From Armatimonadetes bacterium Uphvl-Ar1 (GTDB lineage: Bacteria > Armatimonadota > Fimbriimonadia > Fimbriimonadales > Fimbriimonadaceae): a DNA stretch of 64,000 nt. The notes under the pieces were generated by a model. That model made no database searches and was not told the DNA's origin. It was given only the letters and a program-made list of their open reading frames with translations. Below, one piece after another: positions 9,764 to 56,186 of this stretch. The translations under genes were made by a program, and so were the position numbers. The stretch covers positions 2,294,001 through 2,358,000 of the forward strand of contig CP021423.1 in assembly GCA_002162075.1 (NCBI GenBank). Reading direction: 5' to 3'. Positions within the stretch are counted from its first letter, which is position 1; each line of letters begins with the position of its first letter.

Positions 9764-12233
9764 TTGGTACGCGACGCCCTCATTCAGCTCATTTCAAAAG
9801 CCATTGATGAATTGGTGGAAAAACAAGTAATTGACCCTTCAATCAAGTCAATACCCATCGAAATTGAGCCGCCGAAGCAAGCCGACCATGGCGATTTCGC
9901 CACAAACTTCTGTCTCGTCGCCTCCAAAACTGCCCGAACCAACCCCCGCGCCCTCGCCGAAACCCTCCTCCCCGCCATCCTCGACGCTCAACTTTCCCTC
10001 CCCAAGATTGGGGAGGGTCAGGGCGGGGTTGACCAAGAACAACCTTGTAGCAACAGTGAAACCAGTGATTCTCGCCCCCCCTCCCCTCGGGGGAGGGATT
10101 AAGGGAGGGGAAGGGATGGGGCACAAACTCCCAAGCATCCTCCGGCAGACCCCTTGGTCCTGAGCACCCCCCCATCCTCTCCGCCGAAATCGCCGGTCCC
10201 GGCTTCATCAATTTCCGCCTCAACCCCGCCTGGGCCGCACAATTCCTGACCGATGTCCTCGAAAACCCCGGCGACTTCTACAAACCCAAGAACGACAACC
10301 CCCAAAAAATCAACGTCGAATTCGTCTCCGTCAACCCCAACGGCCCGATTACTATCGGCTCCGGCCGCGGCGCTGCCTTCGGCTCCGCTCTCTGCAATGT
10401 CCTCGAAGCCGCCGGAAACACCGTCCACCGCGAGTACTACATCAACGACGGCGTCAACTCCGAACAAATGCGCCTCTTCGCCGAATCGGTCAAAGCCATT
10501 ATCGAGGGCCGCCCCGTCCCCGACAACGGCTACAAAGGCGACTATGTCCAAGATGTTGCTGTTTATCTTCAATATTGGCATGAAGAAATTCCTGAACTAA
10601 ACACATATTTTCGACCGTGGACATACTCTTCCGAATTAAGACACATTGAAGAAACTGATTGGCCTGAGAGCAAACGCTACTTAATTAATAGGAGACGAAC
10701 TGTTATCAATGAAGTATTGCGCTTTGCGGAGCAAAAGTCGCTCGCTATAGCAGACTTACCAGTCTCGCTGTATCAAGAATTGGCTCAGTCAGCAATGACA
10801 CACATTCAAGGTAATGCTCTAACTAGGTTTAATGTTGAATTCGACACCTGGTTCTCCGAACAATCCCTCCACGATTCCGGCGTTGTCGAACAAGAACTCC
10901 AACACCTCCTCACAACCCAAGTAGCCGACGACGAGCTCACGCGCACCAAAGTCGTTTTCGCCAAAGGCGGACAAATCAAAGAAGTCCTCAAAGAAGCACA
11001 ACCCAACGACGAAGAAAAAACCAATGATGAGGAAGTTCCCCCCCCAAGCCTGGGGGGGGCAGGGGAGGGGTTGAAATTCAACTTTCGGGTGGCAACGGAG
11101 AAACCAGTGATTCCGATTCCCCCCTCCCCGCTGGGGAGGGACTCAGGGAGGGGCAAGAAACAAAAACCATCTGGCTCCGATCAACCAAGTTCGGCGACGA
11201 CCAAGACCGCGTCCTCAAACGCGCCGACGGTCGCCTCACCTATATCGCCAGCGACGTCGCCTACCACAAAGACAAATTCAACCGCCCCACCAACGCCGAC
11301 AAGCTCATCACCGTTCTCGGACCCGACCACCACGGCTACATCGCTCGACTCACCGCCGTTGTCGCCGCCATGTTCAGCGACCAAGTCACTCCCCTCGACA
11401 ACCCCGAACCCCTCACCGAGCACGAAGCCCTCATCTACTCCTCCGTCGAAGAGCGCAACCAGTGCCAAGCCGCCCTCGCTTGGGCAAAAGACCACCTCGA
11501 AGTCCAAATCTTCCAAATCGTCCGCTTCCTCAAAGACGGCAAACCCGCCCCCATGCGCAAACGCGACGGCAACATTTACGCTCTCATCGACCTGATCAAC
11601 GAAATTGGCGAAACCCTCAAACCCGACGGCATAACCGAAGAAAAACAACAAGCTGGCTCCGACGTCGCCCGGTTCTTCTACCTTATGCGTCACCACGACA
11701 CCGCGATGGATTTCGATCTCGAACTCGCCACCAAGCAGTCCGACGAAAACCCCGTGTTCTATGTCCAATACGCCCACGCCCGCATCTGCAGCGTGATCGA
11801 TAAAGCCAGCGCAAGTCTCCCCCTCTCTGCGTCAGTGGAGAGGGGGCCGGGGGGTGAGGTCATCGAAAGCCCCCACTCCGCTTCAATGGAGATAGGGTTG
11901 GGGCTGAGGTCACGCGCCCTCCACCTGCTACAACACCCTAAAGAACTCGCCCTGATCCTCAAAATCTGCGACCTCCAAAACGAAGTCGCCCGCACCGCCG
12001 AGGATTACAGCGTCAACCGACTCACCACCTACGCCATCGAACTGGCGCGAACCTACCACAGCTTTTACGATTCCTGCCGCGTGATCCAACCCGATCAGCC
12101 CGAGCTGAGCCATGCCCGCCTTGCTCTCTGCGAAGCCACCCGAACCGCTCTCCGGGCCGCCCTCGAACTCTTGGGTGTCTCCGCCCCAACGCGCATGGAA
12201 AGAAATTCTCCGATAGCCGAACATCATTCATAA
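9764..12233 (+). CDS. argS: Arginyl-tRNA synthetase, split over three frames
   Basis: Class I enzyme charging tRNA-Arg. The N-terminal ADHGDFATNF domain (frame of 9764) runs to about 10075. The catalytic core (PGFINFRL, NPNGPITIGSGRGAAFG, GYKGDYVQD, FDTWFSEQSL) is in the frame of 10174-11040. The rest (FGDDQDRVLKR, GPDHHGYIARL, MRKRDGNIYALIDL, FDLELATKQSDENP and the anticodon-binding domain ending LGVSAPTRM) is in the frame of 11163-12233. Each switch equals loss of one base and falls in or next to C/G runs of a repeat doublet (about 10075-10093 and 11038-11059). A third doublet at 11816-11912 is read through in frame. The HIGH signature is altered to TIGS, and 10555-10840 is AT-rich with rare codons. 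The TTG start is uncertain. Either a functional gene with read or assembly indels at the repeats, or a decaying copy. Confidence 0.85.
9995..10110 (+). repeat. Palindromic G-rich repeat doublet 1, inside argS
   Basis: Two copies of the repeat (9995-10030 and 10075-10110) in the same orientation, 44 bases apart. Each is CCCTCCCC, short loop, GGGGAGGG, then a second G-rich block (AGGGCGGGG or AGGGAGGGG). They fall between the N-terminal domain and the GPGFINF region, a natural loop. The apparent frameshift lies in the second copy. The stretch between the copies shares GAAACCAGTGATT with doublet 2. Confidence 0.85.
11038..11153 (+). repeat. Palindromic G-rich repeat doublet 2, inside argS
   Basis: Copies at 11038-11073 and 11117-11153, same orientation and spacing (43 bases) as doublet 1. 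The first copy has degenerated to eight Cs and eight Gs, which makes the reading frame hard to trust; the switch to the third argS frame happens somewhere between 11028 and 11165. Confidence 0.85.
11816..11912 (+). repeat. Palindromic repeat doublet 3 (variant type), inside argS
   Basis: Copies at 11816-11861 and about 11869-11912 belong to a variant with CCCCTCTC...GGAGAGGGGG and a GGGTGAGGTCA-like tail. They are translated in frame, as LPLSASVERGPGGEVIES followed by a second similar stretch, between QYAHARICSVIDKAS and LHLLQHPKEL of the anticodon-binding region. Confidence 0.75.
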
Positions 12234-14184: not shown

Positions 14185-14422
14185 GTCATTTCCCTCCCCA
14201 AGTTGGGGAGGGTCAGGGAGGGGTTGAACGCGAAGAACCCTACTTCCCCAAATCCATGTCCGAACTATGCCCCGGGAACAACTTCGCCGAAGGATCAATC
14301 ATCGTCATTTCCCTCCCCAAGTTGGGGAGTGTCAGGGAGGGGTTGAACGCGAAGAACCCTACTTCCCTAAATCCATATCCGAACTATGCCCCGGGAACAA
14401 CTTCGCCGAAGGATCAATCATC
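14185..14422 (+). repeat. Tandem 119-base duplication carrying the G-rich palindrome
   Basis: Two direct copies (14185-14303 and 14304-14422) each contain one palindromic repeat (CCCTCCCCAAGTTGGGGAGG-like, at 14190-14226 and 14309-14345) and a stretch encoding the last residues of the neighbouring reductase. The right copy holds the real end of that gene (stop at 14359-14361); the left copy is a non-coding duplicate of the tail. Differences are few, so the duplication looks recent. This explains most of the 328-base gap 14030-14358; nothing else was seen there. Confidence 0.9.
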
Positions 14423-19822: not shown

Positions 19823-20541
19823 CTATTCTGAAAGAGATCGCATTGCTCGCTTCGCTATCCGATCAGCAACCCCAAGTTCACCCCAATCCGCAACCAGTCC
19901 ACGAACCCACTCTGGCTGGCTCTTCCCCGCATCGTTCAGCCAATTCGCAACCGAATCCTGAACATACCGCGACCCATCTTCCCGCAAAGGCTCCAAAATG
20001 GGCAACCCTCGCCAAGGCTCCAACTTCAAAGCCGGAATATGCGCACACCACACCCCTCTGGGCCGAGTCACTTCACTCGCAAACCGCCGGATATTGGGAT
20101 CAGAATCAAAGGACCAATTAGTCAGTTTTTCAATCGCTAGGTCAAGCTCACCAATCACCCGCCCTCGAGCCGCCAACCAAACCCATTCCCGAACACCAAA
20201 ATGGGGATCAGCCGCAAACGGCTTCAAATCCTGCAACACCCCAATCAAATCCCCACCAACCGCTACCCGAGCGTAACAAGCCCACCCCGAACGGTATCCG
20301 ACTGGTGATCTCGAAACTCCGCCCACCGCTCTCCCATCGCCGATCCTGCCGCCGCCATGCGCCCGGTCACTCCGCCAGCCGCTAAGCCATCACATTCCCC
20401 GCCGATAACCGCCATCCAGAGAGCCGAGAAGTCCATTGCCAAAGTCTCGGAAAGGTTAACCGTTTCATCCTGGCCCGAATTCAAATTCGCCAAGACATCA
20501 GCCGGAACTAACTTGGGAGAACTCGCCCCGGTTCGCTGCAT
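19823..20541 (-). CDS. DNA alkylation repair-like HEAT protein (AlkD-like), frameshifted
   Basis: Two overlapping frames together make one protein of about 238 residues. The first (from ATG at 20541) runs to RDHQSDTVRG; the second continues GWACYARVAVGGDL, PFAADPHFGVREWVWLAARG, RRFASEVTRPRGVWCAHIPALK and YVQDSVANWLNDAGKSQPEWV. These are hallmarks of AlkD-like HEAT-repeat DNA-binding proteins. The join needs one extra G in the run of four at 20285-20288. Its ATG overlaps the stop of the phytase-like gene as TAATG, so it is the third gene of that operon. Either a real inactivation or a homopolymer read error; the intact protein pattern on both sides favours the latter or a very recent event. 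Confidence 0.75.
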
Positions 20542-22420: not shown

Positions 22421-22496
22421 TCCGTCTCTATCCTACTCCGATCAAACAGTTTCGTTGCCGTATTCAGCCTCAAAGCCCGGCTAGTAGCATAAGCAC

Positions 22497-22538
22497 CCAC
22501 CCTCCCCAATCAAATGGGGAGGGATTTAGGGAGGGGTT
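22497..22538 (+). repeat. Palindromic G-rich repeat, intergenic
   Basis: CCCTCCCC, ten-base loop (AATCAAAT core), GGGGAGGG, then AGGGAGGGGTT. Four G runs fit a G-quadruplex pattern. It sits in the 257-base divergent gap between the proteasome-like gene and asnS, where nothing else was recognised. Confidence 0.85.
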
Positions 22539-26298: not shown

Positions 26299-26364
26299 AA
26301 GCAAATAGTCATGCCCACCCTGAAAAACACCGCAACACCATGCTCAAATCAATGCTCCTCCCCT

Positions 26365-26404
26365 TCCCCTCCCCAATGAAATGGGGAGGGGAAGGGGAGG
26401 GGTT
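26365..26404 (+). repeat. Palindromic G-rich repeat, intergenic
   Basis: CCCCTCCCC, AATGAAAT loop, then GGGGAGGGGAAGGGGAGGGG: four runs of four Gs, the strongest G-quadruplex pattern in the window. It lies between two plus-strand ABC genes. Confidence 0.88.
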
Positions 26405-31271: not shown

Positions 31272-31310
31272 GCAGCGTTGAGTCGTCATTCCGGTGTATG
31301 CCTTCTCGAT

Positions 31311-31352
31311 TCCCCCTCTCCGTTTTAATGGAGAGGAGGTCAGGGGGTGAGG
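31311..31352 (+). repeat. Palindromic repeat, variant type
   Basis: TCCCCCTCTCC, TTTTAAT loop, GGAGAGGAGGTCAGGGGGTG and AGGT. It resembles the variant repeats inside argS (11816-11912) and lies between two convergent genes. Confidence 0.75.
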
Positions 31353-31365
31353 TGATCATTCCTCC

Positions 31366-51609: not shown

Positions 51610-51630
51610 GTTAGATGTAGGTTGCTTCAT

Positions 51631-51668
51631 TCCCTCCCCAAGTTTGGGGAGGGATTAAGGGTGGGGTT
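51631..51668 (+). repeat. Palindromic G-rich repeat, intergenic
   Basis: CCCTCCCC, AAGTTT loop, GGGGAGGGATTAAGGGTGGGG and TT. Four G runs fit a G-quadruplex pattern. It lies 22 bases after lepA. Confidence 0.88.
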
Positions 51669-54124: not shown

Positions 54125-54862
54125 ATGGAACTTGAAGACGAGCTTCTTGACCAAAGAAAGGAGTTCCGTTCCGAGCCTGATGAAGTTACAAGAGCCCGCT
54201 GGATACAAGTCGCAGTGGCTCTTTGCCTTTGCTTTGTTCCCGCTTGGCTGTCAAATGTTTATAACGCGACCAACTACTATCCCTCAACCCCCTTTGACAA
54301 TAGCTTTGCCTCAATAATCGCCAATTTTCCAACCGCAATCGCCCTCCTTTACATTGCTTACAACGGTAAGTGGACAGCCGCTCAATTCGGACTTGATCGA
54401 CTAAAATGGCAGCACTTTGGATTCGGAGTAGCAACGTGCTTCTTTGCGTTAATCGCCGAATTTTTTGCTCGAACACTCCAGTTCATCGTCCTGTCAAAGT
54501 TCCTGCCTCAACCTGATGGCAACGACCTTTTCAATCCCGGAATCTTCCCAATTCTTCCTGGATTGGTCTTAAGCCTCGTACTCAACTCGTTGGTCGAAGA
54601 GATCAGCTTTCGCGGATTTATCGATACTCACCTACCAATACTTCTCAATTCTCCCGTCTTTGGAATCGTAATCTCTGCCGCTCTCTTTTCAAGCTATCAC
54701 ATCTATCAAGGATGGGCCTCGCTCTTCCCAATCTTCATCTTTGGTATTTCAATGGCCATCAGTCGCAAAGTATTTGAATCAATCTGGCCCGCAATAATCG
54801 GCCATACCTTGTGTAACCTAATGATCTACATGGGCTGGCTGAACTTCCTACTAAAACACTAA
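54125..54862 (+). CDS. CPBP-family intramembrane metalloprotease
   Basis: A 245-residue protein with about seven hydrophobic segments and the three CPBP (Abi/CAAX protease-like) motifs: EEISFRG (EExxxR), FSSYH (FxxxH) and HTLCN (HxxxN). These ligate zinc and form the active site within the membrane. The substrate is unknown; roles include prenyl-protein-like processing and bacteriocin self-immunity. It follows the nitronate monooxygenase-like gene by 15 bases and its stop overlaps that of the convergent methyltransferase by four bases. Confidence 0.88.
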   Translation: MELEDELLDQRKEFRSEPDEVTRARWIQVAVALCLCFVPAWLSNVYNATNYYPSTPFDNSFASIIANFPTAIALLYIAYNGKWTAAQFGLDRLKWQHFGFGVATCFFALIAEFFARTLQFIVLSKFLPQPDGNDLFNPGIFPILPGLVLSLVLNSLVEEISFRGFIDTHLPILLNSPVFGIVISAALFSSYHIYQGWASLFPIFIFGISMAISRKVFESIWPAIIGHTLCNLMIYMGWLNFLLKH

Positions 54863-56150: not shown

Positions 56151-56186
56151 ACCCCTCCCCAGATGGGGAGGGGAAGGGGTGGGGTG
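56151..56186 (+). repeat. Palindromic G-rich repeat, intergenic
   Basis: ACCCCTCCCC, AGAT loop, GGGGAGGGGAAGGGGTGGGG and TGA. Four runs of four Gs. It lies in the 270-base divergent gap between the methyltransferase and ftsY, where nothing else was recognised. Confidence 0.88.

What the first reader, a model, noticed from the sequence alone, without database searches (positions are those of the whole stretch)
9995..11912. Three repeat doublets inserted inside argS, two at loops of the enzyme
Each insertion carries two repeat copies in the same orientation, 43-44 bases apart in the first two and about 7 in the third. The first two share the spacer segment GAAACCAGTGATT, so they are copies of one composite element. 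Doublet 3 is translated without a frame change. This resembles the Rickettsia palindromic elements that enter reading frames, but I know of no such description for this phylum. It suggests a mobile element that tolerates or prefers coding DNA.
Basis: partly seen in the sequence, partly recalled or inferred. Interest (0 to 1): 0.7.

Follow-up and report, generated by a model that had tools for sequence, protein, structure and literature searches.

The report
Fork-oriented palindromic repeats inside argS
Short GC-rich palindromic repeats of a known class have been inserted several times into tolerant spots of an essential tRNA-synthetase gene in a Fimbriimonadaceae bacterium, and across its chromosome every detected copy of four unrelated repeat families points the same way relative to replication, which suggests that they enter DNA at the replication fork.

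Summary
The six repeat copies in argS are real, in three pairs. Pairs 1-2 are one family (A), pair 3 another (B). Both have the layout of class II intrastrand-triplex motifs (BoxC/PIT/TM), known from >260 bacterial genomes. The shared 'spacer' is probably a decayed third repeat (family D). Relatives carry different repeats at the same three length-variable positions of an otherwise intact argS, so these are recurrent insertions into tolerant sites. The two frame breaks at pairs 1 and 2 fall in C7 and C8/G8 runs. Three other window genes show one-base homopolymer-type deletions against a 90%-identical relative, so the breaks are probably assembly errors; in-frame decoration is the likely truth. 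REPs inside genes, tRNA synthetases included, are already published for other bacteria. The unexpected result is polarity: 79 of 79 copies of four unrelated palindrome families (A 21, B 29, C 22, D 7) lie in one orientation per replichore, although genes are unbiased (48% leading) and the E. coli TM repeats show none (10/23). G001, the nearest relative, agrees (30/30); congener G003 only weakly (26/40). Best reading: miniature elements inserted as single-stranded DNA at the fork. Insertion mechanism and agent are inferred, not shown. Known repeat kind, new behaviour.

The parts
9764..10077 (+). argS fragment 1 (N-terminal domain), frame 2
   Evidence: translation; Pfam Arg_tRNA_synt_N E 7.8e-14
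9994..10030 (+). repeat copy 1 of pair 1, family A (CCCTCCCC-AAGATT-GGGGAGGG-TC-AGGGCGGGGTT)
10045..10070 (+). spacer of pair 1, probable decayed family D palindrome (..GTGAAACCAGTGATT)
10072..10112 (+). repeat copy 2 of pair 1, family A
10075..10081 (+). C7 run at the first argS frame break; probable one-base assembly deletion
10078..11045 (+). argS fragment 2 (catalytic domain), frame 1
10551..10839 (+). AT-rich hypervariable in-frame segment of argS, not part of the repeats
   Evidence: no DNA homology to G001 although flanks are ~90% identical
11037..11073 (+). repeat copy 1 of pair 2, family A variant with C8/G8 stem
11038..11059 (+). C8 and G8 runs at the second argS frame break
11086..11112 (+). 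spacer of pair 2, probable decayed family D palindrome (GGTGGCAACGGAGAAACCAGTGATTC)
11115..11156 (+). repeat copy 2 of pair 2, family A
11046..12233 (+). argS fragment 3 (catalytic C-terminal part and DALR anticodon domain), frame 0
11816..11861 (+). repeat copy 1 of pair 3, family B, in frame
11870..11914 (+). repeat copy 2 of pair 3, family B (degenerate), in frame
14189..14228 (+). intergenic family A copy
14308..14347 (+). intergenic family A copy, 119 bp after the previous one (duplicated unit)
22496..22537 (+). intergenic family A copy absent from G001
26360..26402 (+). intergenic family A-like copy absent from G001
31310..31353 (+). intergenic family B copy
51629..51668 (+). intergenic family A copy; G001 holds a different element at the same place
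56152..56184 (+). intergenic family A-like copy

Best explanation
The argS pairs are insertions of short non-autonomous palindromic repeats. Families A and B have the class II intrastrand-triplex layout (pyrimidine stem, loop, purine stem, short loop, mirrored purine third strand) of BoxC/PIT/TM motifs; a decayed GTGG-type palindrome (D) seems to lie between the two copies of pairs 1 and 2. They sit at three length-variable positions of ArgRS that tolerate extra residues, and are translated in frame; the two frame breaks in this assembly are probably one-base deletions in long C/G runs. Genome-wide, families A-D enter in one fixed orientation relative to fork movement. The written strand (purine-rich for A/B; tag-bearing 5' end for C/D) always lies on the C-rich strand, that is the leading-strand template. 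Inferred step: the elements insert as single-stranded DNA at the replication fork. A Y1 (RAYT-type) enzyme is the candidate for D; the agent for A-C is unknown. Shown: repeats, recurrence at the same sites, intact argS in relatives, polarity. Inferred: ssDNA insertion, translation of the inserts, assembly error.
For: Repeats and coordinates. Whole-genome hits on one strand per arm: A, B, C, D; summed 79/79 distinct copies in 53 clusters, none mixed, P about 3e-13 for two or fewer runs. Switch points (0.994-1.276 and 2.561-2.728 Mb) contain the GC-skew switches at ~1.12-1.15 and ~2.69-2.70 Mb; dnaA at 2.912 Mb is nearer the latter. Genes unbiased: 48% of coding on the leading strand. Hairpin energies nearly equal on both strands. 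G001: 30/30 agree with local skew, no mixed contig runs apart from one single switch. Copies absent from G001 in the window keep the same polarity. Relatives: 19 full-length argS and one contig-cut copy are each one open frame with different inserts at the same sites. Frame-break artefact: three other window genes have one-base deletions against G001, none the reverse. RAYT-type genes flanked by D. Triplex layout and the E. coli contrast: PMC4666352.
Against: No target-site duplication or clean empty site was found. Neither Y1 gene of this genome is flanked by A or B copies, and G001 has A/B copies but no Y1_Tnp match. For D, whose tag end is known, the GTGG strand lies on the leading-strand template, opposite to the simplest IS608-type expectation for the active strand. 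Polarity is weak in G003 (26/40) and mixed in G004. GC-skew origin and dnaA are 0.21 Mb apart. Assembly error at the argS frame breaks is inferred; no reads were seen.
Confidence: 0.58

Rival explanations
1. Insertion is random in orientation, but copies in the other orientation are lost: a purine strand able to form a triplex or G-quadruplex stalls or is deleted when it is the lagging-strand template, so only the tolerated orientation survives.
For: All 12 tested A sequences have a four-run G-quadruplex pattern on the written strand only. A/B have the triplex layout; PIT elements block polymerase in vitro and TM loci are unstable (PMC4666352).
Against: Families C (22/22) and D (7/7) have neither G4 pattern nor triplex layout and show the same polarity. 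B lacks the G4 pattern. E. coli TM repeats of the same class show no bias (10/23).
Confidence: 0.25
2. The repeats are selected polar signals of chromosome biology (segregation or recombination signals such as KOPS or Chi), placed by selection in one orientation.
For: Strict polarity with switches at the skew switches. GGGGAGGG contains the E. coli KOPS core GGGNAGGG (own knowledge).
Against: The KOPS-like core is in the palindrome, hence on both strands. Only about 80 copies of four unrelated sequences, none enriched near the terminus. Some copies lie inside genes and sites differ between close relatives.
Confidence: 0.08
3. The argS breaks are real: the gene is split, or the RNA is spliced or frameshifted at the hairpins, or the gene is decaying.
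For: Two frame changes exactly within pairs 1 and 2. Slippery C/G runs could allow slippage.
Against: No other ArgRS catalytic domain was found in the genome by Pfam (but that search also missed the argS here), and the protein query found one place only. Relatives' argS are open. Other genes in the window show the same type of one-base deletion outside any repeat.
Confidence: 0.09

Closest known systems
Class II G/C-rich intrastrand triplex motif (TM; BoxC; PIT element), Holder et al. 2015, PMC4666352
   Same: Same anatomy: pyrimidine stem, short loop, purine stem, 1-6 nt loop, mirrored purine third strand. Family B is very close to E. coli CCCTCTCCC-GGGAGAGGG-GGGTGAGGG.
   Different: E. coli copies are always intergenic and have no strand bias; here copies lie in reading frames and all follow the replichore.
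GTAG/CGTC-tagged REPs and RAYT transposases, Di Nocera et al. 2013, PMC3733652
   Same: Families D (GTGG tag, flanks Y1/RAYT-type genes) and C (GTC tag as in CGTC REPs) match. That paper reports REPs within genes, tRNA synthetases included, often as dimers at one or two sites.
   Different: A and B carry no GTAG or CGTC tag. Complete replichore polarity is not mentioned there (word search).
Rickettsia palindromic elements (RPE)
   Same: Palindromic repeats inserted into reading frames and apparently translated.
   Different: RPE-1-type elements are longer and described from rickettsiae (own knowledge). No sequence comparison with RPE was made here.
IS200/IS605 single-strand transposition (IS608, ISDra2), PMC6006769
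   Same: Works like it: orientation tied to replication, hairpin-bearing ends, Y1 transposase.
   Different: No tnpA between A/B copies; no Y1 hit in G001; sign for D opposite to the simple expectation; no target motif identified.

Membership tests
Class II intrastrand triplex motif (TM/BoxC/PIT) | Pyrimidine stem - loop - complementary purine stem - short loop - mirrored purine third strand | tested here: met
   A: CCCTCCCC..GGGGAGGG..GGGNGGGG; B: CCCCTCTCC..GGAGAGGGG..GGGGTGAGG
Class II intrastrand triplex motif (TM/BoxC/PIT) | Folds as a triplex in solution | not testable with these tools
   needs CD/NMR
Class II intrastrand triplex motif (TM/BoxC/PIT) | Intergenic, no strand bias (as reported for E. 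coli; a description, not a definition) | tested here: not met
   in-frame copies; A+B 50/50 polarised
RAYT-associated REP (GTAG superfamily) | GTAG/GTGG tag next to the palindrome | tested here: not met
   not met for A and B; met for D (GGTGGCA...)
RAYT-associated REP (GTAG superfamily) | Copies flank a Y1/RAYT gene | tested here: inconclusive
   D copies flank L010 (both sides) and adjoin L168 and L171; A/B do not closely flank any Y1 gene seen
CGTC-tagged REP | CGTC at one end | tested here: inconclusive
   Family C begins GTCATTCCGGG; base before GTC not scored; A/B lack it
Rickettsia palindromic element | Sequence match to an RPE family | not tested
   no RPE sequence compared
IS200/IS605-type ssDNA transposition | Orientation fixed relative to replication | tested here: met
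   79/79 in G000, 30/30 in G001; G003 only 26/40
IS200/IS605-type ssDNA transposition | Y1 transposase acting on these ends | tested here: inconclusive
   Y1 genes present in G000, G003, G004, G007; none found in G001, G002, G005, G006

The most novel reading that the evidence does not exclude
Several unrelated families of small palindromic repeats are inserted as single-stranded DNA at replication forks by a shared host-level route that needs no dedicated transposase, producing complete replichore polarity and repeated in-frame decoration of proteins at tolerant sites.
Probability: 0.3. Interest if true: 0.82.

Novelty: new variant of a known kind. Interest (0 to 1): 0.58.

Why it matters
How REP and triplex-type repeats spread is an open question; no transposition of TM/BoxC elements has been shown to my knowledge. 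A genome in which every detected copy of four unrelated families obeys replication direction, with gene orientation ruled out and the hairpin energies equal on both strands, gives a direct handle on the mechanism: it points to the fork as entry point. It also shows triplex-type repeats being built into an essential enzyme, with turnover between close relatives.

Tried and rejected
Composite element with a fixed spacer: rejected; GAAACCAGTGATT was found only in these two argS spacers among the held G000 loci and looks like a decayed D palindrome. Rfam: no relevant match. Gene orientation as the cause of polarity: rejected (48% leading). Hairpin stability difference between strands: rejected. 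G-quadruplex selection alone: does not cover B, C, D. A/B mobilised by the resident Y1 genes: not supported by flanks. Clean empty sites or target duplications against G001: none recognisable. AlphaFold model of G001 argS with two sequences: unusable, mean pLDDT 34. Pfam tRNA-synt_1d search for argS failed on the genus because this ArgRS is divergent; a protein query worked.

Full report
What was checked. The window lies at 2,294,001-2,358,000 of a single-contig 2.985 Mb genome. argS is on the + strand, 9764-12233, in three reading frames: frame 2 to about 10077, frame 1 to about 11045, frame 0 to the stop. Pfam finds the N-terminal domain, weak catalytic matches and the DALR anticodon domain in these pieces. 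The four copies of pairs 1 and 2 share the plan CCCTCCCC-loop-GGGGAGGG-loop-AGGGNGGGG (family A; the first copy of pair 2 has C8/G8 stems). The two copies of pair 3 share CCCCTCTCC-loop-GGAGAGGGG-loop-GGGGTGAGG (family B), the second copy degenerate.

Recurrent insertion in argS. A protein search brought argS from 79 of 85 genomes of the GTDB family. Twenty were read: each is one open frame (one is cut by a contig end), 515-896 aa. The three repeat sites are length-variable in the alignment. At site 2, G001 has an A and a B element, G007, G003 and G004 an A-like element; at site 3, G001 has one A element, G003 a B-type one and G007 none recognisable; at site 1, G001 and G007 carry other palindromes resembling family C and CATCCC..GGGAT types. 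So the same tolerant points receive different repeats in different species. The shared spacer of pairs 1 and 2 resembles family D (GGTGGCACTGGT..ACCAGTG): clean copies lie beside argS in G003 and G004, and the same family flanks a Y1 transposase gene in this genome.

Frame breaks. The overlap of open frames at pair 1 contains a C7 run, at pair 2 a C8 and a G8 run; four of the five C/G runs of 7 or more in the window are in argS. Each break needs one added base. Against the syntenic 70 kb of G001 (about 90% DNA identity) three other window genes have one-base deletions at short runs (positions near 20,287, 21,409 and 26,027), while none of the window's open genes is broken in G001. Assembly deletion is therefore the simplest explanation, but no reads were available. 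Pair 3 is in frame without any correction.

Other genes. In-frame A, B, C or D copies also occur in an NFACT protein (three tandem copies, L071), two FHA-domain proteins (L068, L069; the latter with several palindrome types in one linker), a purple-acid-phosphatase-like protein (L067) and an APH-like kinase (L070). Most sampled copies are not in long open frames: of 33 sampled A/B copies, 11 have 60 or more open codons on both sides. All non-argS copies in the window are intergenic. The elements tolerate coding DNA; preference is not shown.

Replication polarity. Pattern searches of the genome gave A at 23 rows (21 distinct), B at 29, C (GTCATTCCGGG..CCCGGAATC) at 22 and D at 7 places. All copies from 0.018 to 0.994 Mb are on the minus strand, all from 1.276 to 2.561 Mb on the plus strand, all from 2.728 to 2.937 Mb on the minus strand. 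That is 79 of 79 distinct copies in 53 clusters of 5 kb, none mixed; chance of at most two runs on the circle about 3e-13. GC skew is strong (about +/-0.25) and changes sign at about 1.12-1.15 and 2.69-2.70 Mb (in one search the signs printed for minus-strand rows were flipped by my script, as the loci turned out not to be reoriented). dnaA lies at 2.912 Mb, nearer the minus-to-plus switch, so the G-rich strand is taken as leading. The written strand of every family lies on the C-rich strand. Coding sequence is 48% leading, so gene orientation is not the cause. Hairpin energies on the two strands differ by at most about 0.5 kcal/mol on average. G-quadruplex patterns occur in A only. In G001, 30 of 30 copies in sampled stretches agree with local skew and no contig mixes orientations except one single switch. 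In G003, with weaker skew, 26 of 40 agree; G004 is mostly polarised with exceptions. In Omnitrophota loci 10 of 13 agree. Copies present in the window and absent from G001 (22496, 26360) have the same orientation, so independent insertions, and not only inheritance, are polarised.

Comparison with the literature. Holder et al. (PMC4666352) describe TM/BoxC motifs with this layout in more than 260 genomes; in E. coli they are always intergenic without strand bias, and scoring their Table 1 by replichore gives 10 of 23 (oriC and dif positions from my own knowledge). Di Nocera et al. (PMC3733652) report intragenic REPs, dimers, and tRNA-synthetase genes among the targets. Y1 transposases act on the lagging-strand template (PMC6006769). 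I found no paper in the held library that reports complete replichore polarity of REP-like repeats; this is a limited search.

Mechanism. The simplest account of shared polarity in four unrelated families is insertion coupled to the fork, as single-stranded DNA. For D a Y1 enzyme is at hand; for A, B and C no enzyme is identified, and G001 has no Y1_Tnp match. The sign is not the one the simplest IS608 model predicts for D. Strand-specific loss is the main rival and would need separate reasons for C and D.

Noticed in passing
window 10551-10839 and argS of G001, G003, G004, G007, G056: An AT-rich in-frame segment of argS between GYKGDY and FDTWFSE has no recognisable homology between close relatives (about 40 aa in most, up to 256 aa in G004) although flanks are nearly identical: a hypervariable cassette in an essential enzyme.
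   Followed up: partly
window about 10341-10380 and argS of 20 relatives: All 21 ArgRS sequences read T[IV]GS where class I synthetases have HIGH (NPNGPITIGSGRG versus NPTGPLHIGHARG in 3fnr), and MRKRDGN stands where MSKRAGN is expected; Pfam tRNA-synt_1d misses the genus.
   Followed up: partly
G000 chromosome, e.g. L095, L108; window: GC skew of about 0.25 per strand is far above the typical 2.5% quoted in the SkewDB abstract (PMC8941118), and is much weaker in the congener G003.
   Followed up: no
window near 20287, 21409 and 26027: Three genes with one-base deletions relative to G001, probable assembly errors.
   Followed up: yes
L067, L068, L069, L070, L071: Five other genes of this genome with in-frame palindromic repeats, including an NFACT (RqcH-type) protein with three tandem copies.
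   Followed up: partly
window 54125-54862: A 245-aa gene present here and absent from the syntenic place in G001.
   Followed up: no
L009 (G000 about 447.8 kb): A 140-aa IS200-like Y1 transposase gene next to two copies of another palindrome, GACCCCTCCGGGGTCAGGGTG.
   Followed up: no
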